Below are positions 9,018 through 23,872 of a stretch of 64,000 bases of DNA, piece by piece (the stretch's first letter is position 1; every line of letters begins with the position of its first letter). Source of the stretch: an uncultured Oscillospiraceae bacterium (GTDB lineage Bacteria > Bacillota > Clostridia > Oscillospirales > Oscillospiraceae). Below the pieces are notes generated by a model. That model was not told where the DNA came from. It ran no database searches and saw only the letters and a list, made by a program, of their open reading frames with translations. The stretch covers positions 1 through 64,000 of the forward strand of contig CALXDP010000010.1 in assembly GCA_944387095.1 (NCBI GenBank), read 5' to 3'. A program made the translations under genes and the position numbers.

Positions 9018-9290
9018 ATGAGAATCAGGCATCCACGTTTGCAAGTGCTTCTTCCCAGCATGTCTGTTGTCCTGCTGGCCGGATGCGCTGGGCGTATCAT
9101 GCCCAGCGCATCTGCCAGCAGCTCACCCCCCGAGGAACCACAGAAAAGTGCCCCGCAGACAAATTCTGACGCTCCGGCGACTGCCGAGCAGGGTATTTTC
9201 TCCGCTGGCGGCACAGTCATTTCCTTGGACGGCACCTTCGACGTGTCCAACTACATTGAGCGATTTGTACTGCCCGTAGCCCTGGGGTAG
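9018..9290 (+). CDS. Small putative lipoprotein, probably truncated
   Basis: Ninety residues from ATG 9018: a short basic start (MRIRHPRLQ), a hydrophobic stretch and the lipobox LLAGC at about residues 16-20, then a Ser/Pro-rich linker (SASASSSPPEEPQK) and a short folded-looking end (GGTVISLDGTFDVSNYIERF). No convincing ribosome-binding site and a terminus soon after the linker suggest a truncated gene at the end of a decaying region. No family recognised. Confidence 0.4.
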   Translation: MRIRHPRLQVLLPSMSVVLLAGCAGRIMPSASASSSPPEEPQKSAPQTNSDAPATAEQGIFSAGGTVISLDGTFDVSNYIERFVLPVALG

Positions 9291-9419
9291 TTCCAGACAT
9301 CCAGGATACTTTATTGTCACGCCCCGCTTTGACTGACCCTCTTCAGCGCGGCTGGAGACCGTTTCAGATAAAAGCACCCTCAAGGGCGAGACCGGTATCT
9401 GCCTCCTGACAAAGTAGTT

Positions 9420-10847
9420 TCAGATTGCCGCATTCCTGTGAAAAAACTGCTTTACCAGTCCTTTATTGCCCTGGTGCAAGATATTGCCGTTTTCCAGCCA
9501 CAATACCCGGTCGCATAGAGCGGTGGCACACCGGAAGTCGTGGGTGATGGTGACCATGGTATTGCACTGCTCCCGGTGGACGGCGTTGAGCACCTCCACC
9601 AGCTGGTGAAGCCCGGCGTAGTCCTGACCCACTGTAGGTTCGTCCAACAGCAACAGTTTGGGCTTCTGAGCCAGGATTGCAGCGATGGTTACCCGGCGCT
9701 TCTGCCCCTCAGACAGAGAGTGGGGGTGTCGCTCCAGCAGATCGGTCAGACCGAAACGCATGGCCAGGTCCAGGGCATAGTCCCGGCTGGCGGCGGCAAA
9801 GGTAAGTTCGTCGGCCACCGAGGGCATGAATAGCTGGTAGTTGGGGTTCTGGTACACCACTCCTACCGCCTGGAACCAGCGCCTGTCCGCCTTTTCCCTC
9901 AGAGCGGGGTCCAGAAACTGCTCCACCGTGCCCCCGTCCGCCTTGAGAAGCCGGGCCAGGAGGGAGAGCAGGGTGGACTTGCCGCAGCCGTTCTCCCCCA
10001 GTAAGAGCAGCCGCTCCCCGGCCATCAGGTCAAAGGACAGCCCGTCCAGCACCGCGCGCCCCTCAAAGCCCTTGGTGAGTCGGGATACCCGCAGGGCGAG
10101 GGAGGGGGCAGCCAGACAGTCGGCCGGGGTGTCCTGGATGACATTCACCTGGCTGCCCAGGTAGGCGGCCTTATCAGGCACCAGATGGGCACTGCCCTCC
10201 CGCAGCTCCCACACCACGTCCACATAGGGGAGCACCACGTCCAGCCGGTGCTCCACCAACAGCACCGCCTTGCCCTGGCCGGCCAGGGCACGCAACAGGG
10301 TCAGCAGCTCGTGAGCCCCTTGTTGGTCCAAGTTGGCCAGGGGCTCATCAAAGATGAGGATGTCAGCCCCCATGGCCAGGGTGGAGGCAGTGACCAGCCG
10401 CTGCTTCTGTCCCCCTGACAGGGTGCGGGTGGCCCAACCCCGCTCCAGGTCCAACAGGGTACAGCTGTGGTCGATGCACCGGTCAATCTCAGCGGGATCC
10501 ACCCCAAAGTTCTCGCAGCCGAAGGCGATTTCGTCCTCCACGCTTTGGTGGATGATCTGAGATTCGGCGTTTTGTAACACCGAGCCTACCTTCCGGGAGA
10601 TCTGACTCATGGTATGCCCCGCCATATCCTCCCCGTCCACCAGGATGCGTCCGTCCAGTTTCCCGCCGGTCATCCGGGGGATGACTCCGTTGATGAGGGA
10701 GAGCAGGGTGGACTTGCCGCAGCCGGACAGGCCGGAGAGCAGGGTAACCTGGCCGTAGTCCATGTAAAAGTCCACATCCCGGAGCACCGGGGACTGGCAA
10801 CCGTCATAAGTGAAGGTGCGCACCTCCACCTGCACTGCCCAGCTCAT
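9420..10847 (-). CDS. ECF transporter double ATPase (EcfA1-EcfA2 fusion)
   Basis: A 475-residue protein with two ABC ATPase domains: Walker A GLSGCGKST near residue 36, signature LSGGQKQR and Walker B ILIFDEPLANLD in the first half; Walker A GENGCGKST near 285, LSEGQKRR and LLLLDEPTVGQD in the second. It powers an energy-coupling-factor importer at the inner face of the membrane. Its ATG overlaps the stop of ecfT by four bases (ATGA), so translation is coupled. Fused ATPases of this kind serve dedicated ECF modules rather than shared ones. Confidence 0.9.
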   Translation of the reverse strand: MSWAVQVEVRTFTYDGCQSPVLRDVDFYMDYGQVTLLSGLSGCGKSTLLSLINGVIPRMTGGKLDGRILVDGEDMAGHTMSQISRKVGSVLQNAESQIIHQSVEDEIAFGCENFGVDPAEIDRCIDHSCTLLDLERGWATRTLSGGQKQRLVTASTLAMGADILIFDEPLANLDQQGAHELLTLLRALAGQGKAVLLVEHRLDVVLPYVDVVWELREGSAHLVPDKAAYLGSQVNVIQDTPADCLAAPSLALRVSRLTKGFEGRAVLDGLSFDLMAGERLLLLGENGCGKSTLLSLLARLLKADGGTVEQFLDPALREKADRRWFQAVGVVYQNPNYQLFMPSVADELTFAAASRDYALDLAMRFGLTDLLERHPHSLSEGQKRRVTIAAILAQKPKLLLLDEPTVGQDYAGLHQLVEVLNAVHREQCNTMVTITHDFRCATALCDRVLWLENGNILHQGNKGLVKQFFHRNAAI

Positions 10848-11566
10848 GCCAGCACCCCCTGCACCGGGGCGGCCAGCCCCAAGGCGGGCGCGGCCACTCC
10901 CAGCGCCAGGACAACCAAGAACAGCCCGGCAAAGCACAGGTCCTTCCCGATGAGCCGGACGGGGTGGTATACCGTATAGCCCCCGCTGTTCCCCACAAAG
11001 CCCCGGGTCTCCACCGACAGAGCCAGGGTATCTGAGATGTTCACCAGCCGCACCAGCAGGGGAATAAGAAAGGCCCGGTAAAAGGCGGCCGGGTTCCAGA
11101 TGGAGGTGATCCCCCGGGTGCGCATGGCGGCGCGGACCTGGCGCACCTCTCCGGAGAGCACCGGGACAAAGCTGGTGGTGATAAGCATTCCCAAGGTAAG
11201 CAGCCGGGGACAGCCCAGAGCGGTGAGGCACCTGGTGAGGTGGACCGGGGGCATGGCCAGCCCGGGCAGCACCGCCACCCCCACCCCAGCCAGCCGGTTG
11301 GCCATCTGCCAGGCAAACACTCCGTTGCCTCCGCTGGCCAGGTAAAAAATCAGGCTGAACCCCCCTACATAGAGGAGGAGAATGGGTAGAACCTTTCGGC
11401 AGATGGAGGCGTATCCAAACAGGCACAACAGCACAAAGACTGCTGCCACAAACACAGTGCCCCACACACTCCTGGCCAGGGCCAGCGCCCCGATGAGGGT
11501 GAGCAAGGCGGCCAGGATGCTCACAATAGGGTAGAGGGGACGGCGCACGTAAAACCGGTCAGTCAT
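10844..11566 (-). CDS. ECF transporter transmembrane coupling protein EcfT
   Basis: A 240-residue CbiQ/EcfT-type membrane protein: N-terminal hydrophobic segments (residues 12-85), then the coupling helices with the Ala-Arg-Gly-type motifs visible as RAAMRTRGI near residue 147 and ALSVETRGFVG near 193, then a final membrane segment. These motifs dock onto the two ATPase domains encoded downstream. It overlaps both neighbours by ATGA, so the S component, EcfT and EcfA are one translational unit. Confidence 0.88.
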   Translation of the reverse strand: MTDRFYVRRPLYPIVSILAALLTLIGALALARSVWGTVFVAAVFVLLCLFGYASICRKVLPILLLYVGGFSLIFYLASGGNGVFAWQMANRLAGVGVAVLPGLAMPPVHLTRCLTALGCPRLLTLGMLITTSFVPVLSGEVRQVRAAMRTRGITSIWNPAAFYRAFLIPLLVRLVNISDTLALSVETRGFVGNSGGYTVYHPVRLIGKDLCFAGLFLVVLALGVAAPALGLAAPVQGVLA

Positions 11567-12123
11567 CGCTTCAGAACCCCCGCCTTTTGCAGTTCCCGGG
11601 AGATTTTTATACCCAGGAAGGCTCCCAGGGCGCTCACCGCAATGGCCGCCAACACGCAGGCGACGGCGGCAATCTGGAGCCCCTGGCCAAAGAACTGCTG
11701 GAACATGTCCCCGGCAAAATAGACGTAATAGAGATAGTTGAAGGGCAGGGTGAGCGGGATGAACAGCCAGGCGGAGAAGAACACCGCCTTGTCGCTCTGA
11801 TAGCCCTTAAAAATCAGTACCGCCAGCACCTCGAGGGCCAGACCGGTGAGCAGGCTGGAGAAGAACATCACCGGGGCCATAAACAGCTCCACGATGCCGG
11901 TAAACACAGCGAAGAATAGGATGGATCCCACCTTGCGCACCTTCATCAGGGCCACGGCGGGGAACAGGGAGAACTGTAGTGCGGTGACCAGCTGGGCCAG
12001 GCCGAAGATATGGATTTGGGATACCACCGCCATCACCGCAGCGGTGCAGGTGGCCACGGCAGACAGGATGGCCAGAAACACCATGTCCTTCACGGTCATT
12101 TTTTGAAATACCTCTGTTTTCAT
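11563..12123 (-). CDS. ECF substrate-binding (S) component, MptD-like
   Basis: A 186-residue membrane protein with five or six helices, beginning MKTEVFQKMTVKDMVFLAIL and resembling the MptD/Trep_Strep group of putative ECF S components. Specificity of this group is not established from sequence. It is encoded directly before EcfT (ATGA overlap) and directly after two permease-ATPase ABC proteins (4-base gap), so the complete importer and the ABC pair share a transcript. The context favours uptake of a metal chelate or similar cofactor rather than a common vitamin, but that is inference. Confidence 0.75.
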   Translation of the reverse strand: MKTEVFQKMTVKDMVFLAILSAVATCTAAVMAVVSQIHIFGLAQLVTALQFSLFPAVALMKVRKVGSILFFAVFTGIVELFMAPVMFFSSLLTGLALEVLAVLIFKGYQSDKAVFFSAWLFIPLTLPFNYLYYVYFAGDMFQQFFGQGLQIAAVACVLAAIAVSALGAFLGIKISRELQKAGVLKR

Positions 12124-12127
12124 CGCG

Positions 12128-13810
12128 TTACCTCTCTTGCTCCATGATTCCCTCCCGGATGGCGTACACCCGGTCGGCGATGGCCATAGTGGACGCCCGG
12201 TGAGACACTAATATGATGCACTTATCCCTCTTCTGCCGGGCGATGGCCCGAAGGATGATGCCTTCGTTGATGCTGTCCACATTGCTGGTGGGCTCGTCTA
12301 AGAGGATGACCGGGCTGTCGTGGAGAAATGCCCGGGCCAGGCCCAGCCGCTGGCGCTCCCCGGCAGACAGGTTGTCCCCCAGCGCCCCCACCCGGGTCTG
12401 ATACCCGTCGGGCAGGGTGCGGATGAAGTCGTGGATGGAGGCCTTGCGGCAGGCCTCCTCCAACTCCTCCCGTGTGGCGTCCGGCTTGGCCATACGCAGG
12501 TTGTCCTCAATGGTCTCGTCAAAGAGATAGGTGCTCTGGCTGACCATGGTGACATTGTCCAGCAGGCTCTTGGAGTTGACGGCGGCCACGTCGGCACCGT
12601 TGTAGAGGATTTCTCCCCCATCCTTCTCCCAGAACCGAAGCAGCAGCTTGAGCAAGGTGGACTTGCCGCACCCCGAGGGGCCCACCAGCCCCACAATCTC
12701 CCCCCGCCGGGCGGTGAGGAACACCCCCCGGAGCACCGGCTCCCTGTCATAGGAGAAGGTGAGATTCCGCACCTCCAGATGATCGAAATCAAAGTCCACC
12801 CCATCGGTCACCGGAGTGACCGATGGCTGTTCCTCCAACAGGTCCAGCACCCGGTCGCCGCTGGCGAAGGTCTGGGTCAGGTTGCCCGGCAGGGCAGAGA
12901 TGGCAATGACCGGGCCAAAAGAGCCAAAGATGGCCACCACCCCCACAATCATCTTTCCCAGGGACAGCCCCCCGGACAGGTGCAACCCCACTCCGGCCAG
13001 CAGGGCAATCAGGATGAACAGGGACACGCACAGCTCGGTGACACCGGAAGCCAGAGCGGTGGCGCGGCGGGCGATCGCAGTCTGCTCCTGGAGCTTCTCC
13101 GACCGGCGGTCTACCTCGGCGGCCCGGGCGGGTCCGGCGTTGTTCAGCACGATGTCCTTCACCCCTTTGACGCTGTCCAGAAAGTAGCCATTGAAGGAGG
13201 CGAATTCCTTCCGGTAGGCCACCCCAGAGGGGCGCAGCCTGACGCTGGAGACCAGGGGCAGCACGATACCAATGACCAGAGAGCCCGCCAGGGCCGCCAG
13301 GGCCAGATACCAGCTGACGTAAAAGCCCACAAAGAGCAACACCGTCAGCGAGACCAGCACTGCGATGCAGATGGGAGAAATGGTGTGGGCATAGAACACC
13401 TCCAGCGTCTCAATGTCGGCGGTGAGCATGGCGATGATGGCCCCCTTCTGCTTGCTCTCCAGCTTGGCGGGGCACAGCACCCGCAGGGCTTTGAAGATTT
13501 TGTCCCGGATCACCGCTAGCAGCTTGAAGGCGATATAGTGGTTGCTATATTGCTCCCACAGGCGGAGCACCCCCCGCAGCACCCCGCAGAGGATGGCACA
13601 GGCCATGATCTGGCCGTAGCTCAGGGCCACCACCTCCCCCAGCAGCTTGGCGACACCCAGGGCTCCGAAAACCATCACCCCCATGGCGCACAAAAAGCCC
13701 AGCGCACCGCCGATGACCGCCAGGATAATCACCCAGGCCAGGGGGCCCACCAGGGCGATGAGCCGGGCCATGATGACGATGCCAGGGCGTCGCTCTCTTG
13801 TCTTAGCCAT
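12128..13810 (-). CDS. ABC transporter, fused permease-ATPase (half-transporter 2)
   Basis: A 560-residue type IV ABC half-transporter: six membrane helices in residues 1-310, then an ATPase domain with GPSGCGKST near residue 365, signature LSAGERQRLG and Walker B VILLDEPTSNVD with the switch His in LVSHRAST. The start at 13810 is preferred because GGAGGTG lies 7 bases upstream; it overlaps the preceding gene by 8 bases. Paired with the 571-residue protein upstream it should form a heterodimer. In YbtP/YbtQ and IrtA/IrtB such exporter-like proteins import siderophores, and the adjoining ECF module makes import plausible here. Confidence 0.88.
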   Translation of the reverse strand: MAKTRERRPGIVIMARLIALVGPLAWVIILAVIGGALGFLCAMGVMVFGALGVAKLLGEVVALSYGQIMACAILCGVLRGVLRLWEQYSNHYIAFKLLAVIRDKIFKALRVLCPAKLESKQKGAIIAMLTADIETLEVFYAHTISPICIAVLVSLTVLLFVGFYVSWYLALAALAGSLVIGIVLPLVSSVRLRPSGVAYRKEFASFNGYFLDSVKGVKDIVLNNAGPARAAEVDRRSEKLQEQTAIARRATALASGVTELCVSLFILIALLAGVGLHLSGGLSLGKMIVGVVAIFGSFGPVIAISALPGNLTQTFASGDRVLDLLEEQPSVTPVTDGVDFDFDHLEVRNLTFSYDREPVLRGVFLTARRGEIVGLVGPSGCGKSTLLKLLLRFWEKDGGEILYNGADVAAVNSKSLLDNVTMVSQSTYLFDETIEDNLRMAKPDATREELEEACRKASIHDFIRTLPDGYQTRVGALGDNLSAGERQRLGLARAFLHDSPVILLDEPTSNVDSINEGIILRAIARQKRDKCIILVSHRASTMAIADRVYAIREGIMEQER

Positions 13811-15518
13811 GGACATTCACCTCCTCCAGTTCCCTTTGGGCCCGGTACATCCGGGCGTACACGCCGCCGCGCTCCATCAGTTCCCCATGGGTACCCGACT
13901 CGGCCACGGCTCCGTCGGCCAGCATATAGATGCATCCGGCGTCCACCACGTTGGCCAGCCGGTGAGAGATGAGGATGACCGTCTTTTCCCGGGCCAGTTT
14001 GGCCACATTGTCCATGATAACCCCTTCGCTGTCCACATCGATGTTGCTGGTGGCCTCGTCAAAGAGGTAGATATCCCGGTCGGCGGCCAGGGCAATGGCC
14101 AGGGCCAGGCGCTGTTTCTGCCCGCCGGAGATGTTGGCCCCGTCCTCGCTGATGATTTTGTCCAATCCCCCGGCCTGACGGATGAAGCCGTCCAGCCGCA
14201 CCCGGGCCAAGGCGTCCCAGATCGCCTCCTCACCCACCTGGGGGCAGGCCAGCTGGAAGTTGGCCCGGACGGTGTCATTGAAAATGTAGGTGTTATAGCT
14301 CACCACCGCCAGGCGACGGTAGTAGCCCTCCCGGCTCAGGGTGTCCACCGGGGCGTCCCCCAGCAGCACCCGGCCGGTCCCGGCCCGCAGGCCACCGGAC
14401 AGCAGGGACACCACAGTGGACTTGCCCGCGCCGCTCTCCCCCACGATGGCGGTGAGGGTTTTGGGCGGGAAGACCATGGACACATCGGTGAGAACCCGCC
14501 GCTGGCCGTCATAGGAGAAGGTGACGTGATCCAGGGCCAGCGAACCGCTTTCCGGCTCTCGATCCCCCCACTCCGGCTCCTCCTGGTTGAGCAGCTGGAT
14601 AATCTTCTGCCCGGCGGAGGCGCCGTTCATGGCCACGTGGAAGGCGCTGCCCAGGGCTCGGAGGGGGAGGAAGAACTCCACTGCCACTAAGATAAGGAAC
14701 AGGCACACAGCCGGATTCGTCCCGTGCAGGGCGGCCCGAATGGCCAGGCACACCCCCAGCCCGGCGCCTCCGTAGGCGATCAGATCCATGATGGTGGTGC
14801 TGGCCAGCTGCATCACCAGCACCTTCATGGTGATCCGGCGGAAATCCTCCGCCTGCCCGTTCATCCGGTCGTTCCGCGCCGCGTCCGCCTGGAAGATCTT
14901 CAACTCCTTCAGGCCCTGGACGCTGTCCAGGAAGCCGTCCCCCATGGAGGTGTACTTACCCCAGTACTTGGCAAAGATTTTCTTGGCGTACTTGGATACC
15001 GCCACGATGGACAGCGGGATCAGGGGCACGCAGCACAGCAGCACCAGGGCGGTGGGCCAGTCCAACCAGACGCAGATCAGAAATAGCACCACCGGGGCGA
15101 TCATGGCGTAGAAAAACTGGGGCAGGTAGGTGGAGTAGTAGAGGTCCAGCTGCTCGATACCCTCCATGGTCACCTGGGTCAGACCGGCCATGGACATCTC
15201 CCCGGTGGAGCGCACCCCTAAGCGCAGGATCTTGTCGTAAGTCCGGCGGCGCAGGTCGGCCTTCACTGCGCTGCCCAGCCGGGTTTTCAACCCCCCCGCC
15301 TTCACGGTGAGGACAAAGCGGGCGGCGATGCCCACAGCCATGAGAATCAGCGGCTGCCACAGCCGGGCCACGTCCCCGGCGATAACCTGGCTGAAAATCC
15401 AGCAGATGCCGGCGGTGATGGCCAGGTTGGCCAGCAGCCCGGCCAGGTTGAGCAACACGGTATAGACGATGTAGATTCGCTGTCCCTGGATCAGGGCCAG
15501 CAGCTTCTTATCCAGCAT
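13803..15518 (-). CDS. ABC transporter, fused permease-ATPase (half-transporter 1)
   Basis: A 571-residue ABC half-transporter starting MLDKKLLALIQGQRIY, with six membrane helices in residues 1-310 and an ATPase domain: Walker A GESGAGKST near residue 365, signature ISGGQKQRLA and Walker B IYLFDEATSNID, then SHRLANV. Length and order are those of CydC/CydD/YbtQ-type proteins. The ATG at 15518 lies 11 bases inside the end of the YgbA-like gene. An upstream in-frame start (15557) would overlap that gene much further and lacks support. Confidence 0.88.
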   Translation of the reverse strand: MLDKKLLALIQGQRIYIVYTVLLNLAGLLANLAITAGICWIFSQVIAGDVARLWQPLILMAVGIAARFVLTVKAGGLKTRLGSAVKADLRRRTYDKILRLGVRSTGEMSMAGLTQVTMEGIEQLDLYYSTYLPQFFYAMIAPVVLFLICVWLDWPTALVLLCCVPLIPLSIVAVSKYAKKIFAKYWGKYTSMGDGFLDSVQGLKELKIFQADAARNDRMNGQAEDFRRITMKVLVMQLASTTIMDLIAYGGAGLGVCLAIRAALHGTNPAVCLFLILVAVEFFLPLRALGSAFHVAMNGASAGQKIIQLLNQEEPEWGDREPESGSLALDHVTFSYDGQRRVLTDVSMVFPPKTLTAIVGESGAGKSTVVSLLSGGLRAGTGRVLLGDAPVDTLSREGYYRRLAVVSYNTYIFNDTVRANFQLACPQVGEEAIWDALARVRLDGFIRQAGGLDKIISEDGANISGGQKQRLALAIALAADRDIYLFDEATSNIDVDSEGVIMDNVAKLAREKTVILISHRLANVVDAGCIYMLADGAVAESGTHGELMERGGVYARMYRAQRELEEVNVHG

Positions 15519-15834
15519 GAACCCGCCCGCCTTTCTCCCGGCGCATCTCCACCACATGACGGATGGCGATCACCGGGTGGTGCAACAGCATCCGGGGTCC
15601 GGCGTACCGCATCACCTGCCGGATTTTCTCCTTCATCTCCGGTTTATAGCAGTGGATGGTGCAGTTGCTGCAAAAGGGTTTGGCATCCCCGTGGGGACAC
15701 CTGGACAGCCGCAGCCGGGCGTAGTCCAGCAGTGCCTGACAGTCCGGGCACAGCGTCCTGCCGCCCCCGTGGTTGCCTCGGCAGTAGACCTCAATCATGC
15801 AGGCCACCGTCCGGGTCTCCTTCTCCCGTTCCAT
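15508..15834 (-). CDS. YgbA-like nitrous-oxide-stimulated-promoter family protein
   Basis: A 108-residue cysteine-rich protein of the YgbA family. Visible pairs of cysteines are MIEVYCRGNHGGGRTLCPDC near residues 13-32 and SRCPHGDAKPFCSNCTIHCY near 45-63, an arrangement that could hold a metal or Fe-S centre, followed by a basic helix (KEKIRQVMRYAGPRM). Enterobacterial homologues are induced by nitrosative stress; the biochemical role is unsettled. It is the first gene of the ABC-ECF operon, with AAGGAGG before its ATG and a palindromic operator-like site over the promoter. Confidence 0.8.
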   Translation of the reverse strand: MEREKETRTVACMIEVYCRGNHGGGRTLCPDCQALLDYARLRLSRCPHGDAKPFCSNCTIHCYKPEMKEKIRQVMRYAGPRMLLHHPVIAIRHVVEMRREKGGRVHAG

Positions 15835-15864
15835 GATGATTTCCTCCTTGTTGTCTACGGCTAA

Positions 15865-15895
15865 TTAGCATACACTAACTCCGAGCAGAAAGAAA
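15865..15895 (-). promoter_or_regulatory. Promoter with TTAG-N6-CTAA palindrome over the -10
   Basis: On the minus strand TTTCTT (15895-15890) and TATGCT (15872-15867) are 17 bases apart, about 30 bases before the ygbA-like start. The palindrome TTAG-N6-CTAA (15865-15878) covers the -10 box, as a repressor operator would. It loosely resembles DtxR/MntR-family metal-repressor sites, but the identity is a guess. Confidence 0.45.
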
Positions 15896-16207
15896 TGCGC
15901 GCCGGCAGAGCGCGCAGTTAGCCACTGCTTATTATAGGGAAGGAGTACGGAAATGTCAATCCCTAGATGGACAAGAGGATCTAGCTGAATCGGGAAAAAC
16001 CGGGCCGTTCCGCTGAACTGAGGGTTGTCGAAACCATCACACAATACAGAGGAGGGCCCCTTCCTTGTTGCCAAGCGTAAGCGAAGCAATGCGCGGCTTT
16101 CATTCAGGTGATGCGGGAGGCCTTTATGCAAGGAGCAGCCACTCGTAAGACGGGAAAACCAGCAGAAGTTTTGGGCAGGTGTATGATGGGTGCTCTTTCC
16201 TTCCGCT
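15896..16207. other. Non-coding stretch between the ABC-ECF operon and the sigK fragment
   Basis: No gene is supported. Reading frames on either strand overlap each other and lack ribosome-binding sites. The stretch lies directly downstream of the break in sigK, where the remainder of that gene would be expected, and no frame here encodes a sigma-70 region 2.3 or later. Confidence 0.5.
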
Positions 16208-16414
16208 TTATCTGTTCTTGATGATGTGGGCCACCAGTCTCAAATTGTGCTCGATGAGCTGATCCCGAGCGTCGGCGTCCCCCTGGGCCATCCGTTTGAG
16301 GCACGCCTCTTCCTCCTCCCTGCTCAGGGCCTTGGGAAACGACCCCGTACTCCCTGCCAACCTCAGGGTGAAAAACAGCCCGTTGAGCATCAGCAGCAGC
16401 CATGCCGTCCACAT
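16208..16414 (-). pseudogene. sigK: Sporulation sigma factor SigK, N-terminal segment only
   Basis: Sixty-eight residues that match the start of pro-sigma-K: a hydrophobic pro-sequence ([15 protein letters not shown]), then [34 protein letters not shown] and RLVAHIIK. Pro-sigma-K is normally about 230-240 residues; here N-R-stop follows HIIK, and none of the three frames downstream encodes the expected EDLISIGTIGLIKG segment. The start at 16414 is secure: GGAGGTGA lies 5 bases upstream and a mother-cell -10 element further up. In Bacillus subtilis and Clostridioides difficile sigK is split by the skin element and rebuilt by excision; this fragment could be one side of such a split, or a genuine remnant. 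Confidence 0.85.
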
Positions 16415-16433
16415 GACGATCACCTCCGAGGAA

Positions 16434-16441
16434 AGTGTATG
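16434..16441 (-). promoter_or_regulatory. Mother-cell sigma-E/K -10 element before sigK fragment
   Basis: On the minus strand this reads CATACACT, a full match to the sigma-E -10 consensus (CATACA-A/C-T), 20 bases before the start codon. The -35 half is less clear (a GATAATA-like stretch is further up at about 17 bases). Confidence 0.5.
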
Positions 16442-16600
16442 CGCCCGGTGCGTGTCCCTATTATCGGCACAATACGTCTACCGCCGCCAAAAATTCCCCG
16501 GAACCATGGGACTGTAATCCACTCTTCCCTTTTTCGCAGTTTTCTGCTATACTGTTAAAAGCCTTACGCTTTATCCCTTTAGAGCATTGGAGGAATGTTC

Positions 16601-17551
16601 ATGGATCTTCTGCTGTCCTTTTTTAACTCCCTACCCAACGCGGTGGGTCAGGGTCTGATCTGGGGCATCATGGCCATTGGGGTGTACATCACCTACCGCA
16701 TTCTGGACGTCGCCGACCTGACGGTGGACGGCTCCCTCACCACCGGCGGCGCGGTGTGCGCGGTGTGTATCACCATGGGTTGGAACCCCTGGCTGTCCCT
16801 GCTGGCGGCGGTCCTTGCCGGCATGCTGGCCGGGCTGGTCACCGGCCTGCTCCACACCGCCTGCGGCATCCCCGCCATCCTGGCCGGCATCCTCACCCAG
16901 CTGGCTCTGTACTCCCTCAACCTGCGCATCATGGCCATTGGGGATCCCAATGCCGCTACCAAGGCCACCCTTGCCCTGAGCGTGGACAATGACCAGCTGC
17001 TCCTTTCCTCCCGGTACATCCGGTATACCACCCTGGAAAACCCCCTAGTCCTTTTGATCCCTGTCACCCTGTTGGTCATCGCCCTGCTGTACTGGTTCTT
17101 CGGCACCGAGCTGGGCAGCGCCCTGCGGGCCACCGGCGCCAACCAGGCCATGGCCCGGGCCCAGGGCATCAACACCAGCTTCGGCAAGGTGCTGGGCCTG
17201 GTGGTGTCCAACGGGCTGGTGGCCCTGTCCGGGGCCCTGCTGGCCCAGTATCAGGGCAGCGCTACCAACGACATGGGTCGGGGTGCCATCGTCATCGGCC
17301 TGGCTGCGGTCATCATCGGCGAGGTGCTGCTCAGCCGCGTATTCCGAAACTTCGCCCTGAAGCTGCTGTCCGCCGTCATCGGCGCCATCATCTACTATGC
17401 GGTCATTACCCTGGTGCTCCGGCTGGGCCTGGAGTCCACCGACCTGAAGCTGCTCACCGCCCTGGTCGTGGCCATCTTCTTGGCCATCCCCTATTGGAAG
17501 GGCAGATACTTTTCCAAGCATTTCCGGAGAGGAGGGGCCAGCCATGCTTGA
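16601..17551 (+). CDS. ABC transporter permease (TrpY-like / COG4120)
   Basis: A 316-residue inner-membrane permease with eight to ten helices, beginning MDLLLSFFNSLPNAVGQGLI and carrying the ADLTVDGSLTTGGAV segment typical of the COG4120 permeases related to branched-chain amino acid and sugar (BPL/CUT2-like) importers. GGAGG lies 7 bases before the ATG at 16601. It overlaps the ATPase gene by 8 bases. With the ATPase and the lipoprotein encoded convergently at 18666 it forms the three-part importer; some members of this group import tryptophan or tyrosine, but the ligand cannot be fixed here. Confidence 0.88.
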   Translation: MDLLLSFFNSLPNAVGQGLIWGIMAIGVYITYRILDVADLTVDGSLTTGGAVCAVCITMGWNPWLSLLAAVLAGMLAGLVTGLLHTACGIPAILAGILTQLALYSLNLRIMAIGDPNAATKATLALSVDNDQLLLSSRYIRYTTLENPLVLLIPVTLLVIALLYWFFGTELGSALRATGANQAMARAQGINTSFGKVLGLVVSNGLVALSGALLAQYQGSATNDMGRGAIVIGLAAVIIGEVLLSRVFRNFALKLLSAVIGAIIYYAVITLVLRLGLESTDLKLLTALVVAIFLAIPYWKGRYFSKHFRRGGASHA

Positions 17552-18338
17552 CATCAAAGGGGTCAGCAAGACCTTCAACCCGGGCACCATCAATGAAAAA
17601 GCCGCTCTGCGCAGCGTCTCCCTCCATCTGGAGGACGGGGACTTTGTCACCGTCATCGGGGGCAACGGCGCGGGCAAGTCCACCCTGCTCAACACCGTGG
17701 CCGGCACCTACTTCCCCGACGCGGGCACCATCACCATCGGGGGGGTAGACGTAACCCGGCTTCCGGAACACAAGCGGGCCAAATACATCGGCCGGGTGTT
17801 CCAGGACCCCATGACCGGCACCGCCGCCACCATGCAGATTGAGGAAAACCTAGCTCTGGCCCGGCGGCGGGGGGCCTCCCGCACCCTCCGCCCTGGCATT
17901 ACCCGGGCGGAACGGGGGGAGTACCGGGAGCTGTTGAAGACGCTGGACCTGGGCCTGGAGGACCGGCTCACCGCCAAAGTGGGGCTGCTCTCCGGCGGCC
18001 AGCGCCAGGCCCTCACCCTGCTCATGGCCAGCCTGGTCAAGCCCAAACTGCTGTTGCTGGATGAACACACTGCAGCCCTGGATCCCAAGACCGCTGCCAA
18101 GGTGCTGGACGCCACGGAGAAGATCGTCCAGCGGGACCATCTGACCACATTGATGATCACCCATAACATGCGGGACGCCATCGTCCACGGCAACCGTCTG
18201 ATCATGATGTATGAGGGCCGGATCGCGCTGGACATCTCCGGCGAGGAGAAAAAGAAGCTCACTGTGGAGGACCTGCTTGCCAAGTTCGGCCAGGCCACCG
18301 GCTCCGATGAGGCGGACGACAAGCTGCTTTTGGGGTAA
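17544..18338 (+). CDS. ABC transporter ATP-binding protein (COG1101)
   Basis: A 264-residue ATPase: Walker A GGNGAGKST near residue 38, Q-loop FQDPMTG, signature LSGGQRQALT and Walker B LLLLDEHTAALDP, then MITHNMRDA. The His in place of Pro in DEHTAALD is normal for COG1101 ATPases that pair with COG4120 permeases and COG2984 binding proteins. Its ATG overlaps the permease stop (8 bases), giving coupled translation. Confidence 0.9.
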   Translation: MLDIKGVSKTFNPGTINEKAALRSVSLHLEDGDFVTVIGGNGAGKSTLLNTVAGTYFPDAGTITIGGVDVTRLPEHKRAKYIGRVFQDPMTGTAATMQIEENLALARRRGASRTLRPGITRAERGEYRELLKTLDLGLEDRLTAKVGLLSGGQRQALTLLMASLVKPKLLLLDEHTAALDPKTAAKVLDATEKIVQRDHLTTLMITHNMRDAIVHGNRLIMMYEGRIALDISGEEKKKLTVEDLLAKFGQATGSDEADDKLLLG

Positions 18339-18363
18339 CACCCGGCGGCCCGGAATGGACAGA

Positions 18364-18397
18364 AACATGCCCCGGCTCGGTCGAGCCGGGGCATGTT
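18364..18397 (+). terminator. Perfect 16-bp hairpin ending the permease-ATPase operon
   Basis: Arms 18364-18379 and 18382-18397 are fully complementary around a two-base loop, 26 bases after the ATPase stop codon. Pairs at the base are A-T, so the hairpin brings its own short T end. Confidence 0.75.
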
Positions 18398-18479
18398 CGG
18401 CCATCAAAAAAGGCAACCCCTTTTCCAATGGGGAGGTTGCGGCCTGCCGCAGCGCACTCGAGGTCCGAAAAGGACGGAT

Positions 18480-18593
18480 AGCTCGTATGTTTGCAGGCTG
18501 AGCAATGTTTTTCCCGACGCACATGTCGCTGGGAAAAACAGATCGCATTTGATTGGCGCTTGCGGGGGCGAACTCTGCAAGGCTTTTTTGAGA
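18480..18593 (+). repeat. Structured repeat element, copy A
   Basis: A non-coding block with hairpin GTTTTTCCC/GGGAAAAAC (18507-18515 with 18531-18539; inner CGAC/GTCG), a small second stem around GGCGCTTGCGGGGGCG, then AACTCTGCAAGGCTT (18571-18585), then a terminator-like hairpin. The same order of parts occurs at 23760-23870 with different bases in the stem. Together they look like two members of a dispersed repeat or small-RNA family. Orientation is chosen because the terminator-like hairpin follows on the plus strand. Confidence 0.55.
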
Positions 18594-18635
18594 AGCAGCA
18601 ACTCCCCGGCCCGCTTGGGCCGGGGAGTTGCTGCT
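18594..18635. terminator. Perfect 19-bp hairpin between convergent genes
   Basis: Arms 18594-18612 and 18617-18635 pair completely around GCTT. It follows repeat copy A on the plus strand and lies 31 bases beyond the stop codon of the convergent binding-protein gene, so it can serve both strands. Confidence 0.75.
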
Positions 18636-18665
18636 CATTTGAATCGGAAACCTCGTGTAATGATT

Positions 18666-19658
18666 TTACTCGATGGGCTGGTAGCCTTCGGGCACGGTCA
18701 GGCCCAGGGCTTCGCAGTTGGCGGCGTTGTACAGCTTATCCAGGGTGGTATCGTACTCAATCTCCATTTCGGACACGTCCTCCTCGCCGGTGAGGATGCG
18801 CACGGCCATCTCCCCGGTGATCTGGCCCAACTCATAGTAGTCGATGGACAGAGTGGCCACCCCGCAGCCGGCGCAGATGCCCGACTCTCCGGCCACCACG
18901 GGCACGCCGGCGGGAAGAACCACGTTGGCGATGACCTCGGTGTTGTTGGCGGCGGTGTTATCGGTGGGGATATAGATGACGTCAGAGCCGTCACAGGCGG
19001 TCTGGGTCACGGCGGGCAGGTCGTTGGCATCGTTGAAGGCGTACTGGGTGCAGGTATACCCCATCTCCTCCAGATAGCTCTGGATGGTGGTCACCTGGTA
19101 GACGGAGTTGGGCTCGCCAGAGCAATAGAGCAGGCCAACGTTTTGGGCGTCGGGGAACAGCTCCTGGATCATGGCCGCCTGTTCGTCCAGGGGGGCCAGG
19201 TCAGAGGTGCCCGAGACATTGTCTCCCACGGTGCCCAGGGCGGTCTCGTAGTTGGTCACAGAGGTGCCCAGAATGGGAATGTCCGAGGTGGCGGAGGCGG
19301 CCGCCTGCAGGGGATAGGTGGCGTTAGCCAGGATCAGGTCCACACCCTCGGCAATAAATCCGTCCACAATGGTACCGCAGTTGGCAAACTCACCGGCGGC
19401 GTTTTCCAGCGCAAATCGCACGCCGTCCTCGCCAAAGGCCTCGATCAGCGCGTCCTGGAATCCCTGGGTGGCGGCGTCCAGGGCGTCGTGGGTGGACTGC
19501 TGGCAGATGCCCACCACATAGGCCTCCCCTTCCCCGCCGGCGGCGGAGCTGTCCGCACCAGGATCGCTGGTTTCACCAGTTTCATTTGAGCAGGCCGCCA
19601 GGGCAAACACCATGGCCAGGGCCAGGAGCATGGCGGACAAACGCTTCCTTGTCTTCAT
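18666..19658 (-). CDS. ABC transporter substrate-binding lipoprotein (COG2984)
   Basis: A 330-residue exported lipoprotein: basic start MKTRKRLSAM, hydrophobic core, lipobox LAAC (Cys near residue 23), an acidic Gly/Ser linker, then a periplasmic-binding fold of the COG2984 type (VVGICQQSTHDALDAATQGF, ILANATYPLQAAASATSDIP, VIYIPTDNTAANN). The ATG at 19658 has GGAGG 8 bases upstream; the nearer ATG at 19664 would be only two bases from it. It is the extracellular partner of the permease/ATPase at 16601-18338, unusually encoded in a separate, convergent transcript. Confidence 0.88.
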   Translation of the reverse strand: MKTRKRLSAMLLALAMVFALAACSNETGETSDPGADSSAAGGEGEAYVVGICQQSTHDALDAATQGFQDALIEAFGEDGVRFALENAAGEFANCGTIVDGFIAEGVDLILANATYPLQAAASATSDIPILGTSVTNYETALGTVGDNVSGTSDLAPLDEQAAMIQELFPDAQNVGLLYCSGEPNSVYQVTTIQSYLEEMGYTCTQYAFNDANDLPAVTQTACDGSDVIYIPTDNTAANNTEVIANVVLPAGVPVVAGESGICAGCGVATLSIDYYELGQITGEMAVRILTGEEDVSEMEIEYDTTLDKLYNAANCEALGLTVPEGYQPIE

Positions 19659-19690
19659 TCTCATTTCCTCCAAACACTTTGAACTGTCAC

Positions 19691-19728
19691 TTTATCGCTT
19701 TCATGCAAAAAAGCAAGGAGGCGATAAA
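19691..19728 (-). promoter_or_regulatory. Inverted repeat in the leader of the binding-protein gene
   Basis: TTTATCGC (19691-19698) and GCGATAAA (19721-19728) form a perfect 8-bp dyad around 22 bases, 33 bases before the start codon. A GAGCCC/GGGCTC stem lies just upstream in the transcript. Could be an operator or a leader hairpin; no known riboswitch or T-box core was recognised. Confidence 0.4.
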
Positions 19729-19754
19729 GAGGAGCCCCTTGGGCTCTTTTTGAG

Positions 19755-19783
19755 AGTATACCCTTTTCCACTTCGCCTGTCAA
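19755..19783 (-). promoter_or_regulatory. Strong sigma-A promoter for the binding-protein gene
   Basis: On the minus strand TTGACA (19783-19778) and TATACT (19760-19755) are 17 bases apart, about 100 bases before the start codon, giving a leader of roughly 90 bases. Confidence 0.7.
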
Positions 19784-19808
19784 GGGTTTTATCGCCCCTT
19801 CCTCTGCC

Positions 19809-19832
19809 CCGCCGCCAGATGGCGGCGGGGAC
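19809..19832 (-). terminator. Short GC hairpin after the fliB-like gene
   Basis: CCCCGCCGCC and GGCGGCGGGG (about 19809-19832) form a 10-bp stem with a four-base loop 9 bases past the stop codon of the minus-strand gene. It has no clear T-run. Confidence 0.5.
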
Positions 19833-19840
19833 AGGACAGC

Positions 19841-20956
19841 TCAGCGCTCTGGCTGCCCGGCAAAGGCGGAAAGAAAGGGCCACCGCTCCACATCGCAGAA
19901 CGCCTGGATCAGGGCGGTCAGATTCTCCTCCAGGTGCTCCACCTCCCGGCTGAAGGCGGCCAGCAGGGCAATCTCCCTCGCCCGGTCTGCCCCGCCCGTC
20001 TCCATCCAATCCAGCAGCCGCAGATGATAGATCAGCAGACATCCCGCCCCCGCCATGGCCGCCCGGCCGTAGAGCAGGTCGTCGTTCACCGCCTTGTGCC
20101 AGTGGCGGAACACCAGGTAGCCGGCCAGGTTGGCCAAATGGCGCTCCCACTCCGGGCTTTCCCGCTCAAATCCGGCCCGGGCGGACTGATAGTCCCCCTC
20201 GTCCAACCCCTCCAGCTCCTCCTTCCTCCGGCGCAGCAGCGACCGCCAGGCCGGGCGCAGGGGCTCCAGCTGGGCGCAGGTCTCCATCAGGGCGGCGCAC
20301 AGGGCCTTGAGGGAAACCCTCTCTTCCGTCTCCACCGGCTCCGGAGCGCACCGGACCAGTTCCCCATACAGGGCCAAATCCACGAAGCCCTGGCCCCAGT
20401 CCGCCAGCTCCAGCAGCCCGGCCAGCCTCCGCCACAGAGAGATTGCCCCATTCCCCAGCAGCGCCAATGCCCGTGCCCGGGTGGCCTCCAGGCCCGCCAG
20501 CAGCTCCGGATCCACCCCGTCGAAGGGGGGATCATCTTCCCCGTCGTCCGACTCCTCCAGGACAAATTCCTCCGATTCCAGCAGCAGTCGGGCCGCCTCC
20601 GGACAGGAGACCGCCAGGGCGGTCTCCGTCAGGCAGCCATACTCCTCGGTGAAGCGGGGATAGGCGGCGCAATGGGCGCACAGGTGACTCTCCCCCCAGT
20701 CCCGCTGGATGGCGCACAATCCCTCCGGGGTGAGCAGGGCGCACCGGCCGTCCCCCCGGAGGGCAAAGCAGACCTCCCCGTCCTCTCCCAGCCGCAGCCC
20801 CGCCTCCAGCGTCTCCCGCAGCGGCCGGGGGGCATGCCGGTAGTCCTCTAGCGCCCGCGCGTCCACCACAATCTCCCAGTCCCGGCAGCAGGTGTCCGGG
20901 CAGTCTCCTCCCACACACCGGAACTTTTGGTTGTAGCTGGGCTGTCTGTATATCAT
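19841..20956 (-). CDS. Flagellin lysine-N-methylase-like protein (FliB family)
   Basis: A 371-residue cysteine-rich protein. The N-terminal half carries CVGGDCPDTCC near residues 13-23, GDGRCALLTPEGLCAI near 70-85 and SHLCAHCAAYPRF near 92-104, a cysteine pattern like the Fe-S-binding FliB family, some members of which methylate lysines of flagellin using S-adenosylmethionine. No flagellin or flagellar gene lies in the window, and most Oscillospiraceae homologues are stand-alone genes, so another target is possible. The start at 20956 was chosen over an earlier one because the conserved MIYRQPSYNQ begins there. Confidence 0.75.
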   Translation of the reverse strand: MIYRQPSYNQKFRCVGGDCPDTCCRDWEIVVDARALEDYRHAPRPLRETLEAGLRLGEDGEVCFALRGDGRCALLTPEGLCAIQRDWGESHLCAHCAAYPRFTEEYGCLTETALAVSCPEAARLLLESEEFVLEESDDGEDDPPFDGVDPELLAGLEATRARALALLGNGAISLWRRLAGLLELADWGQGFVDLALYGELVRCAPEPVETEERVSLKALCAALMETCAQLEPLRPAWRSLLRRRKEELEGLDEGDYQSARAGFERESPEWERHLANLAGYLVFRHWHKAVNDDLLYGRAAMAGAGCLLIYHLRLLDWMETGGADRAREIALLAAFSREVEHLEENLTALIQAFCDVERWPFLSAFAGQPER

Positions 20957-21002
20957 GGGAATCCCCCCCATTCTCTTGATTCCATGCGCCTCACTATGTC
21001 CC

Positions 21003-21030
21003 ATTATACCCTTTTTCCCCTCTATGGCAA
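21003..21030 (-). promoter_or_regulatory. Promoter of the fliB-like gene
   Basis: Minus-strand TTGCCA (21030-21025) and TATAAT (21008-21003) with a 16-base spacer, 47 bases from the start codon. It is back-to-back with the plus-strand promoter at 21044. Confidence 0.6.
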
Positions 21031-21043
21031 GTGGGATTTCTGA

Positions 21044-21071
21044 TTGCATTTCCCACAAAAAGTGGTATAAT
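21044..21071 (+). promoter_or_regulatory. Promoter of the CobW GTPase pair
   Basis: TTGCAT (21044-21049) and TATAAT (21066-21071) with a 16-base spacer, 57 bases before the ATG at 21128. No zinc-repressor-type palindrome was recognised around it. Confidence 0.6.
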
Positions 21072-21127
21072 ACCGTCAAATCACAGTTACGGGCCCTGTC
21101 CCGGCGAAAAGAGGTATTCCATCCACT

Positions 21128-22288
21128 ATGACCAAAATCGATATCATCTCCGGCTTTCTAGGGGCCGGCAAAACCACGCTCATCAAAAAGCTGCTGGCCG
21201 AGGCCTATCCCGGCCAGCGCCTGGCCCTCATCGAAAACGAGTTCGGCGAAATCAGCGTCGACGGGGGCTTCCTGAAAGACTCCGGCGTGCAGATCTCCGA
21301 GATGTCCTCCGGATGCATCTGCTGCTCCCTGGTGGGCGACTTCACCCAGGCCCTGCAGGAGGTGCAGGAGCTGTTTCACCCCGACCGCATCCTCATCGAG
21401 CCCTCCGGGGTGGGCAAGCTGTCCGACGTAGTGGCCGCGGTGGAGAACACCGCCGCCCAGGTCCCGGAGCTGGAGCTCAACTGCTCCGTCGCCGTGGTGG
21501 ACGCCACCAAAGTGCAGACCTACCTGAAGAACTTTGGCGAGTTTTACGCCGACCAGGTGCGCACCGCCGGGGCCATCCTCCTCTCCCGCACCCAGAAGCT
21601 CTCCCAGGAGAAGCTGGACCAGGCGGTGGCCCTGCTGCGCGGCGAGAACCCAAAGGCCCCCATCCTCACCACCCCCTGGGAGGAGCTGGATGGTCATACC
21701 ATCCTGGCAGCCATGGAGAACTCCGCCTCCCTGGAGGAGGAACTGCTGGCCGAGCTGCGGGTCCGGCGGAAGGAGGACCACGAGCACTGCTGCCATCACG
21801 GCCAGGAGCATAGCCACGGATGCTGTCATGACCATGGGCACGAGCATCCCCACGACCACAGCCATGAGCGCGGTCACGAACATGGGCATGAGTGCCATCA
21901 TGATCCTGACCACGGCCATGGGTGCGGCTATGACCATGGGCACCACCCGCGCCATGAGCACGAATGCTGCCGCGGCCATCATCACGGGCACAGCCATAAG
22001 GGACACCACCACGCCGACGAGGTGTTTGTCAGCTGGGGCCGGGAGACCGCCCACCCCTTTACCGCCGCCCAGCTGGAGGACATCCTCTCCGCCCTGGACA
22101 CCGGGGAATACGGTGCGGTGCTCCGGGCCAAGGGCATCCTGCCCCAGGCCGGCGGCGGCTGGCTCCACTTTGACTATGTGCCGGAGGAGCACAGCGTCCG
22201 CCCGGGCAACCCGGACTTCACCGGCCGGCTGTGCGTCATCGGCGCCCAGCTGAAGGGGGACCGTCTGGCCCAGCTCTTCGGCCTGTAA
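21128..22288 (+). CDS. CobW/COG0523-type GTPase with long His-rich segment
   Basis: A 386-residue G3E-family P-loop GTPase. Visible are the Walker A SGFLGAGKTT (residues 8-17), the metal-binding CICC motif (C63, C65, C66), the IEPSGVG switch segment near 97, then an exceptional His/Cys-rich stretch around residues 217-297 with repeats such as HGHEHGHE and HHHGHSHKGHHH, followed by a CobW C-terminal domain (RLCVIGAQLKGDRLAQLF). Proteins of this family deliver zinc, nickel or cobalt to client enzymes. The His tract could store metal. It is followed by a second CobW-like GTPase after 13 bases. Confidence 0.9.
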   Translation: MTKIDIISGFLGAGKTTLIKKLLAEAYPGQRLALIENEFGEISVDGGFLKDSGVQISEMSSGCICCSLVGDFTQALQEVQELFHPDRILIEPSGVGKLSDVVAAVENTAAQVPELELNCSVAVVDATKVQTYLKNFGEFYADQVRTAGAILLSRTQKLSQEKLDQAVALLRGENPKAPILTTPWEELDGHTILAAMENSASLEEELLAELRVRRKEDHEHCCHHGQEHSHGCCHDHGHEHPHDHSHERGHEHGHECHHDPDHGHGCGYDHGHHPRHEHECCRGHHHGHSHKGHHHADEVFVSWGRETAHPFTAAQLEDILSALDTGEYGAVLRAKGILPQAGGGWLHFDYVPEEHSVRPGNPDFTGRLCVIGAQLKGDRLAQLFGL

Positions 22289-22301
22289 GGGGGTGCGTCC
22301 C

Positions 22302-23237
22302 ATGCAGGAAATCCCCGTCTATCTCTTCACCGGTTTTCTGGACTCGGGTAAGACCACCTTCCTCAACGGCATCCTGGAGGACGGCTTCGCCAAGGACACG
22401 CCCACCCTGCTGCTGTGCTGTGAGGAGGGGGAGGCGGAATACGATCCCCGGTTCCTGGACAACGTGACGGTGGTCACCATAGACAGCCGAGAGGACCTCA
22501 AGTGTTCCCTGCTCAAGGAGCTGGAGCGGAAGCACCGCCCTGCCCAGGTGGTCATCGAGTACAACGGCATGTGGCCCCTGGCCGACCTGGAGCAGGAGAT
22601 CCTCCCCTCCAACTGGATTCTGTACCAGGTGATGACCACCATCGATGCGGCCACCTTTGACGTGTACGCCAAAAACATGGGGCAGATCATGATGGAAAAA
22701 CTCACCGGCGCGGACATGATCGTCTTCAACCGCTGCACCCCGGCCCTGCGGGACGCCCTGCGAAAGCGCAACCTGCGCATGGTCAACCGCCGGGCGGATA
22801 TCTTCCTGGAGAACACCGACGGCTCCGCCGAGCCCTACCTCACCGGGGACGAGTGCCCCTTCGACCTGAGCCAGGCCGTCATCCACATTCCCGACGACGA
22901 CTTCGGCGTGTGGTACGTGGACGCCATGGAGCATCCAAACCGGTACGCCGGCAAGGACATCCACGCCAAGCTGGTCATGTGCCATGTGCCTCAGTACCCC
23001 GACGTGGCCATCCCGGGGCGGTTCGCCATGGTGTGCTGCGAGAACGACGTCACCTTCCTGGGGGTGGTCGCCAAGGGCAAGGTGTTGAACCAGTTTCCCA
23101 ACCGGGCCTGGGTGGAGCTCACCGCCCGGGTGGAGCTGGGCAGGCACCCCGCCTACGGCGGGGAGGAGGGCCCCATTCTGGCCGTCACCTCCATCGCTCC
23201 CTGTGAGAGAGCACCCCGGGAGGTCCTCACCTTCTGA
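22302..23237 (+). CDS. Second CobW-like GTPase
   Basis: A 311-residue P-loop protein starting MQEIPVYLFTGFLDSGKTTF with Walker A GFLDSGKTT. Unlike its neighbour it has CCEEGE in the position of the CxCC motif, with no obvious CxCC, and no His-rich tail, so its metal chemistry may differ. The C-terminal part (HAKLVMCHVPQYPDVAIPGRF, then FAMVCCENDVTFLG) has a Cys pair. The ATG at 22302 is preferred over a GTG-containing extension because AAGGGGG lies 9 bases upstream. It probably acts with the upstream GTPase in metal allocation. Confidence 0.8.
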   Translation: MQEIPVYLFTGFLDSGKTTFLNGILEDGFAKDTPTLLLCCEEGEAEYDPRFLDNVTVVTIDSREDLKCSLLKELERKHRPAQVVIEYNGMWPLADLEQEILPSNWILYQVMTTIDAATFDVYAKNMGQIMMEKLTGADMIVFNRCTPALRDALRKRNLRMVNRRADIFLENTDGSAEPYLTGDECPFDLSQAVIHIPDDDFGVWYVDAMEHPNRYAGKDIHAKLVMCHVPQYPDVAIPGRFAMVCCENDVTFLGVVAKGKVLNQFPNRAWVELTARVELGRHPAYGGEEGPILAVTSIAPCERAPREVLTF

Positions 23238-23383
23238 TAAACAGAAGAATCCGGTGATTTTCTTCCCTTCCCCCCTTCCCTTGCTTCCTCCAATGTGGTA
23301 TGATGGGGGCGTGAAATCTGTCTTTCTTTTGACGGGCCGCCCCATCCGCCGCCATATTGCGCGCCGAAACAGGAGGAATCGAA

Positions 23384-23867: not shown

Positions 23868-23872
23868 GCTCA

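What the first reader, a model, noticed from the sequence alone, without database searches (positions are those of the whole stretch)
16208..16441. sigK is present only as its N-terminal segment, with an intact start region
The fragment keeps its mother-cell -10 (CATACACT), GGAGGTGA and 66 good codons of pro-sigma-K, then stops at N-R after HIIK; none of the three frames beyond encodes a sigma-70 region. In several endospore formers sigK is split by an excisable skin element, and integration at codon ~66 would be upstream of the B. subtilis junction. Loss of sigma-K would be hard to reconcile with complete spoIVB and dpaA/dpaB in the same window.
Basis: partly seen in the sequence, partly recalled or inferred. 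Interest (0 to 1): 0.8.

Follow-up and report, generated by a model that had tools for sequence, protein, structure and literature searches.

The report
Sporulation gene split by several elements
The late sporulation switch gene sigK of this bacterium is cut into pieces by inserted DNA elements, and relatives show that the gene has three separate insertion sites, of which two or three can be filled at once.

Summary
Window 16414..16208 (-) is the first 66 codons of sigK, and it ends at a recombination scar. The scar (16219..16195) matches the attL of the closest relative at 22 of 25 bases; 100 shuffles gave none. The same cut is read in 14 of 42 genomes of the genus. A dedicated large serine recombinase (LSR1, at least 58% identical) is in 12 of those 14 and in none of the other 28.

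Of the rest of sigK this assembly holds only the last 40 codons, on contig C6 at the collinear place. They begin at a second, different scar (site 3). In relatives site 3 carries its own elements and recombinase.

sigK here has three element sites: codon ~67, ~115 and ~210. Some genomes fill two; G141 is cut at all three. G128, one 4.3-Mb contig, holds two complete elements, and removing both on paper leaves a 230-aa SigK.

In the window's genome the middle piece (residues 70 to ~212) and LSR1 are missing, most simply in the gap between contigs C6 and C10. Loss of the gene is the main rival.

The parts
16208..16414 (-). N-terminal piece of sigK: ATG at 16414, 66 SigK codons, then N-R and stop inside the scar
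   Evidence: ORF; NCBIfam SigK; 9 synonymous and 1 nonsynonymous nucleotide differences from G051
16420..16441 (-).
   Evidence: sequence; both words also stand before sigK of G051
16195..16219 (-). Site-1 attL: core AAGAA (16219..16215) and element arm
   Evidence: one match to the G051 attL with 3 mismatches, 0 in 100 shuffles; the same arm in the other genomes cut at site 1
1..16194 (.). DNA between the scar and the contig start; inferred to be the left part of the site-1 insertion
   Evidence: in G029 the flanks on both sides meet at an intact sigK; 1-9400 has no match at E 1e-60 in G029, G025, G051 and one short one in G014. Genes unlike those of 22 other fetched element stretches
9468..15838 (-). 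6.4-kb ABC-transporter block inside that DNA
   Evidence: 77-84% identical blocks at other places in G025, G014, G029; flanks differ between G025 and G029/G014
16595..25431 (.). 5' flank of sigK, collinear with G029 (intact sigK) and, to about 20533, with G051

Best explanation
The fragment is the first piece of a sigK gene interrupted by skin-type elements. At site 1 (codon ~67) an element inserted by a dedicated large serine recombinase parts it from the rest; its scar is in the window. In this genome another element sits at site 3, within the ISRSYVSR codons of region 4.2, and parts off the last 40 codons. The middle piece (residues 70 to ~212), together with LSR1, which stands beside that piece in the closest relative G051, most likely lies in the unassembled gap between the end of contig C6 and the start of C10. 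In sporulation each recombinase, with a directionality factor, would cut out its own element at its own short core, so that active sigma-K can appear only after both excisions. Shown: both scars, collinearity with an intact locus, recombinases and complete two-element genes in relatives, open frames after joining on paper. Inferred: the content of the gap, excision and its timing, and that this organism's gene works.
For: Scar in the window. LSR1 of at least 58% identity in 12 of 14 genomes cut at site 1 and 0 of the other 28 of the genus. 30 of 30 LSR1 loci returned for the family have a sigK piece at the recombinase's 3' end. Tail of this genome at the collinear place and starting at an arm that is the inverse of the scar in G141. 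Site-3 arm pattern in 22 of 400 genomes, control 0; 20 are left ends in sigK, one is this genome's right end, one is not in sigK. Tails found behind the left end in 5 of 16 stretches. G128, G162, G043, G024 read through as SigK of 230-232 aa after joining, G128, G162 and G043 above the PRK05803 cut-off. N piece 9 synonymous to 1 nonsynonymous change from G051; the first 19 codons of the tail have no nonsynonymous change. SpoIIID present.
Against: No middle piece and no LSR1 in the assembly; no LSR3 match in the own stretches held. The genes in window 1-16187 do not resemble those of 22 other fetched element stretches. The tail as a whole has more nonsynonymous (8) than synonymous (5) changes from G051. 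No reads, no expression, no excised circle. G023, the other site-1-cut genome without LSR1, also lacks a C half, which would fit decay too.
Confidence: 0.68

Rival explanations
1. A fossil. Elements did insert at site 1 and site 3, but the recombinase and the middle piece were later deleted or replaced, so sigK is permanently lost and the organism does not finish sporulation through sigma-K.
For: Middle piece and LSR1 both absent from a 93% complete assembly. Site-1 recombinases with stops exist in G044 and G047, and the G025 C half has stops, so decay does occur in the genus. Six genus genomes, one of them 98% complete (G014), gave no N piece.
Against: One missing contig explains both absences, since LSR1 stands beside the C half in G051. 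Both contigs end inside the insertion. The N piece and the conserved part of the tail are unspoilt.
Confidence: 0.23
2. Contig C10 is chimeric or rearranged: the N piece and its scar are real, but window 1-16187 is DNA from elsewhere in the chromosome and not part of an element.
For: The contents do not resemble other site-1 elements and the ABC block stands at other places in three relatives.
Against: Similarity to G051 ends at the scar and not elsewhere; 1-9400 has no strong match in G029, G025 or G051, as expected of inserted DNA; the flanks are collinear with G029 without a rearrangement.
Confidence: 0.07
3. Plain truncated pseudogene or assembly slip at 16,215 with no mobile element involved.
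For: The frame ends after N-R and no half follows.
Against: The same cut and arm recur across genomes with a recombinase beside them.
Confidence: 0.02

Closest known systems
B. subtilis skin element (sigK-intervening, recombinase SpoIVCA)
   Same: Element in sigK, large serine recombinase, short core with inverted arms, gene readable after removal on paper
   Different: One element at one place (recalled as my site 2); here three sites, several filled at once in some genomes. Passages of PMC5025042
C. difficile skinCd (CD1231 with directionality factor CD1234)
   Same: Recombinase gene next to the 3' part of sigK, as in L034 and G051
   Different: One element; its exact codon was not determined here. 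The paper's passages say only that its site and orientation differ from B. subtilis (PMC5025042). No directionality factor was sought here
Island IV in sigK of B. cereus biovar anthracis
   Same: 22-kb insertion at nucleotide 195 from the start codon, practically my site 1, without phage genes, excised during sporulation (PMC10745906, passages)
   Different: Single element; relation of its recombinase to LSR1 not tested
Prophages in sigK of C. tetani and Alicyclobacillus
   Same: sigK as insertion target (PMC5553647, PMC13141910, passages)
   Different: Phage genomes; sites not compared with mine
Interruption elements of heterocyst-forming cyanobacteria
   Same: Several elements in one developmental gene: 10 of 87 interrupted genes, up to four in nifD (PMC4874684, passages)
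   Different: Another phylum and another development; here a sporulation sigma factor and large serine recombinases

Membership tests
sigK-intervening (skin-type) element | sits inside the sigK reading frame and parts it into pieces | tested here: met
   N piece with scar in the window; tail with another scar on C6
sigK-intervening (skin-type) element | att sites with a short shared core and inverted arms | tested here: met
   Site 1 AARAA, site 2 AAAT, site 3 CTATGT.TC; own genome has one end each of sites 1 and 3
sigK-intervening (skin-type) element | carries its own large serine recombinase | tested here: inconclusive
   Met in relatives; none found in the own assembly (LSR1 at E 1e-60; LSR3 only in the held stretches)
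sigK-intervening (skin-type) element | removal restores a complete SigK frame | tested here: inconclusive
   Met on paper in G051, G017, G019, G032, G012, G015, G007, G005, G043, G024, G128, G162; G025 keeps a stop; not testable for the window, whose middle piece is missing
sigK-intervening (skin-type) element | excision in the mother cell during sporulation | not testable with these tools
   needs sporulating cells
sigK-intervening (skin-type) element | recombination directionality factor | not tested
   not searched for
SigK (sporulation sigma factor) | profile match of the N piece and of rejoined relatives | tested here: met
   N piece E 9e-17 to PRK05803; joined G128 287, G162 256.5, G043 264 and intact G029 273.5 bits, cut-off 252. 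The stricter TIGR02846 cut-off (298.65) is reached by none of the four, intact G029 included

The most novel reading that the evidence does not exclude
sigK of this bacterial family is a general docking gene with three separate sites, each served by a recombinase family specialised on that codon. Single genes carry two or three elements at once, so that sigma-K is made only after several independent excisions: a DNA lock with several bolts on late sporulation. The window's genome holds a site-1 plus site-3 version.
Probability: 0.6. Interest if true: 0.85.

Novelty: new variant of a known kind. Interest (0 to 1): 0.74.

Why it matters
Skin elements are usually told as one element in one gene. 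Here the same regulatory gene has been entered at three conserved places, in some genomes by more than one element at a time. That makes an old question testable: do such elements stay because they time sigma-K, or because the gene is needed only in a cell that dies anyway? Genes with two or three elements can show whether excision is ordered and whether each added element costs or sharpens sporulation. It also warns annotation: a truncated or missing sigK in such genomes may be a split gene, and a missing piece may be an assembly gap.

Tried and rejected
A simple two-piece skin gene in this genome: rejected, because no half from residue 70 is in the assembly and the tail starts at another scar.

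Random decay as the origin of the 40-codon tail: I held this in notes and dropped it when the tail's upstream sequence proved to be the inverse of the G141 scar and a pattern of it hit 22 of 400 genomes against 0 for the control.

Site-3 left ends as a natural 3' end of sigK with a hairpin: rejected, because the tail lies downstream in 5 of 16 fetched stretches (G128, G197, G285, G366, G118; 5 of the 9 with at least 15 kb), close behind LSR3 in four of these. Results against: no tail within about 60 kb in G231, nor within 16-20 kb in G138, G257, G300; each of the 22 genomes gave only one pattern match, and the right-end arms that I read differ more from the pattern.

Site-3 elements in viral contigs: 24 exact hits to a 16-base pattern (15 fixed bases); none shows the sigK codons beside the match; taken as chance.

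Chromosomal rearrangement at the locus: written in a note, not needed once G029 showed both flanks collinear; not excluded.

Literature: no paper on a sigK with several elements turned up in the searches, read as listings plus passages of some; the library holds open-licence PMC papers only.

First joins cut at a wrong base: the three-piece ones and G128 and G162; corrected.

Full report
THE OBSERVATION. On the - strand, 16414..16208 encodes 66 codons of SigK and then N-R-stop, preceded by GGAGGTGA and CATACACT. The piece matches NCBIfam SigK PRK05803 at E 9e-17 over profile positions 4-68. No SigK half starting at residue 70 is in the own genome (2.03 Mb, 62 contigs, 93% complete). The window also holds sigF, spoIIAB, dpaA and dpaB, and spoIIID is on C7.

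THE CUT IS A RECOMBINATION SCAR. Of the 80 loci fetched with the N piece, 7 end sigK at the same codon: L017, L019, L020, L026, L034, L043, L072. Right of the cut most share an arm like TGAAGC(A/G)(A/G)AAGGA, and the window has it. Where the other end is held, the sequence left of the C half is mostly the inverse of that arm, with a shared core AARAA; a few ends (for example L210 and L130) fit poorly. The 25-base attL of G051, the closest relative, occurs once in the window, with 3 mismatches, at 16219..16195; 100 shuffles gave none. L034 shows a whole element of about 7.8 kb: N half, genes, and a 555-aa large serine recombinase (LSR1; Pfam PF00239, PF07508, PF13408) whose end overlaps the start of the C half.

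IN THE GENUS. The search covered 42 genomes. Junctions read show 14 cut at site 1: G000, G012, G015, G017, G019, G023 (= L017), G024, G025, G032, G043, G044, G047, G050, G051. Eighteen have an uninterrupted sigK. Two, G031 and G045, run on to site 3 and end there with the arm described below; one, G016, ends at the same place with other sequence. G022 breaks off at a contig end at site 2. Six gave no N piece (G014, G018, G033, G034, G048, G049). LSR1 of at least 58% identity is in 12 of the 14 and in none of the other 28; the two without are G000 and G023, which also lack a C half. Weaker relatives (30-54%) occur in many, the best a partial 54% match at a contig end in G045. Distances between the pieces on one contig run from about 4.6 kb (G025, whose C half has stops) to about 55 kb (G012).

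IN THE FAMILY. LSR1 (E 1e-150) is in 41 of 400 genomes, 26 of 106 genera. The tool returned 30 loci, and all 30 have a sigK piece at the recombinase's 3' end. The recombinase stands at the N side in some and at the C side in others; a tree of 15 rows needs three changes of side, of which well-supported branches force only one. Some handles are one genome reached twice (G120 and G007; G023 and G002), so counts from different calls should not be added.

TWO ELEMENTS IN ONE GENE. In some genomes the piece after site 1 is itself cut at CIEN|E, site 2, which I recall as the B. subtilis skin position. The ends in G141 read GTGAGGATAGC-AAAT and AAAT-GCTATCCTCAC. N, middle and following piece were all found in G043, G024, G334, G203, G141 and G162; in the last two they lie on one contig. 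G162 carries 8.4 and 7.7 kb of inserted DNA, each stretch with a recombinase ending at the next piece. Only the N and middle pieces were found in G050, G297 and G365 and in G008; the N piece and the piece from site 2 in G047, G004 and G006.

A THIRD SITE. The last 40 codons of this genome's sigK are at G000:C6:97918-97796 (-). They stand where G051 and G029 have the end of sigK: the 3' flank is on C6:90000-97917, the 5' flank in the window from 16188 up. The tail begins right after CGTTTACATTAGGCGCGC; in G141 sigK ends after ISRSYVSR with the inverse of that arm. A pattern of the extended arm (26 positions, up to 3 mismatches) hits 22 of 400 family genomes; the reversed control pattern hits none. 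Of the 22, 20 are left ends in sigK after ISRSYVSR (or SYVSH, SYV-stop in a few), one is this genome's right end, one (L346) is not in sigK. Thirteen of the 20 run on from the start of sigK. Three begin at site 1 (G231, G285, G437). Four begin at site 2 (G128, G257, G300, G141), and G141 is also cut at site 1; its tail was not found before the contig end. I fetched DNA beyond the left end in 16 genomes. The tail was found in 5 (G128, G197, G285, G366, G118), 5 of the 9 with at least 15 kb; it was not found in G231, G138, G257, G300. A third recombinase family lies in these elements: LSR3, 536 aa in G128, 65-83% identical in G118, G366, G285, G138 and G197, and close before the tail in G128, G118, G285 and G366.

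THE CLEANEST CASE. G128 has sigK on one contig of 4.3 Mb, practically the whole genome: piece A 1133684-1134019, 10.9 kb with LSR2, piece B 1144956-1145248, 21.8 kb with LSR3, tail from 1167004. Joined at the cores the pieces give an open 230-aa SigK of 287 bits against a cut-off of 252; intact SigK of G029 scores 273.5. None of the four proteins scored, G029 included, reaches the stricter TIGR02846 cut-off of 298.65.

WHAT IS IN THE WINDOW. In G029 the two flanks meet at an intact sigK. Here they are parted by at least 16.2 kb (window 1-16194, to the contig start) and 4.1 kb (C6:97919-102080, to the contig end). No rearrangement is required: 5' flank, N piece, site-1 insertion, gap, site-3 insertion, tail, 3' flank. 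Residues 70 to about 212 and LSR1 would lie together in the gap if LSR1 stands beside the C half as in G051. The N piece differs from G051 by 9 synonymous and 1 nonsynonymous nucleotide changes; the tail by 5 and 8, all nonsynonymous ones from its 20th codon on. I therefore think that the gene is split and probably alive, but the assembly cannot exclude a fossil. Against me: no LSR1 in the assembly, no LSR3 in the stretches held, and ten proteins of the inserted DNA (seven of the window, three of C6) without a match in 22 other element stretches except a 30% ABC-ATPase likeness in four. The 6.4-kb ABC block at 9468-15838 stands elsewhere, with other flanks, in G025 and in G029/G014.

MECHANISM (inferred). 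Each site would be opened by its own recombinase at a core of a few bases, in the mother cell. Site 1 lies in the HI[IV]KKYY codons, site 2 in CIENE, site 3 in ISRSYVSR, which I recall as part of the region-4.2 recognition helix. A gene with two elements can give sigma-K only after both have left. In C. difficile a directionality factor made in the mother cell restricts excision (PMC5025042, passages); I did not look for one here.

COMPARISON. B. subtilis and C. difficile carry one element each, at different sites (PMC5025042, passages). B. cereus biovar anthracis has a 22-kb island at nucleotide 195 of sigK (PMC10745906, passages), practically site 1, so site 1 is not new as a place. Prophages in sigK are known in C. 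tetani and Alicyclobacillus (PMC5553647, PMC13141910, passages). Several elements in one developmental gene are known from cyanobacteria, up to four in nifD (PMC4874684, passages). I found no report of several elements in one sporulation gene, nor of site 3, in the searches, which cover open-licence PMC papers only. Hence: a new variant of a known kind.

Noticed in passing
window 9468-15838: A 6.4-kb ABC-transporter block with a 'nitrous oxide-stimulated promoter' family gene (15511-15834, -) stands as a unit at other places and with other flanks in G025 and in G029/G014: perhaps a mobile cassette.
   Followed up: partly
L034:1021-6830: The complete site-1 element of L034 also carries a reverse-transcriptase gene (RVT_1), an AAA_14/DUF4143 gene and a tyrosine integrase.
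   Followed up: no
L325-L345 and L131:7921-7980: Just inside most site-3 ends lies a strong hairpin (GCCCGGAAAGCCTTG..CAAGGCTTTCCGGGC), also at this genome's right end: a terminator insulating the element, or part of the att site.
   Followed up: no
G025 (L194:11246) and G016 (L187): sigK of these two genomes breaks at the same ISRSYV codons but with other sequences beyond: perhaps further element families at site 3, or decay.
   Followed up: no
G014: A 98% complete genome, about 93% identical to G029 over one 14-kb stretch, gave no sigK N piece, while G029 has an intact sigK.
   Followed up: no
window 43352-44644: The ORF after sigF, where spoIVB might be expected, has only a weak CHAT-domain match and a signal-like start.
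   Followed up: partly
window 18489-18589 and 23769-23858, L132:9750-9850, L020:1709-1807: A repeated stretch of about 90-100 bp between genes, also in another species' contig.
   Followed up: no
G000:C6:98148-102080 (L131:8149-12081): The DNA next to the tail codes for DUF2971, an HTH-DUF3990 protein and a metallophosphatase, genes that look accessory.
   Followed up: partly
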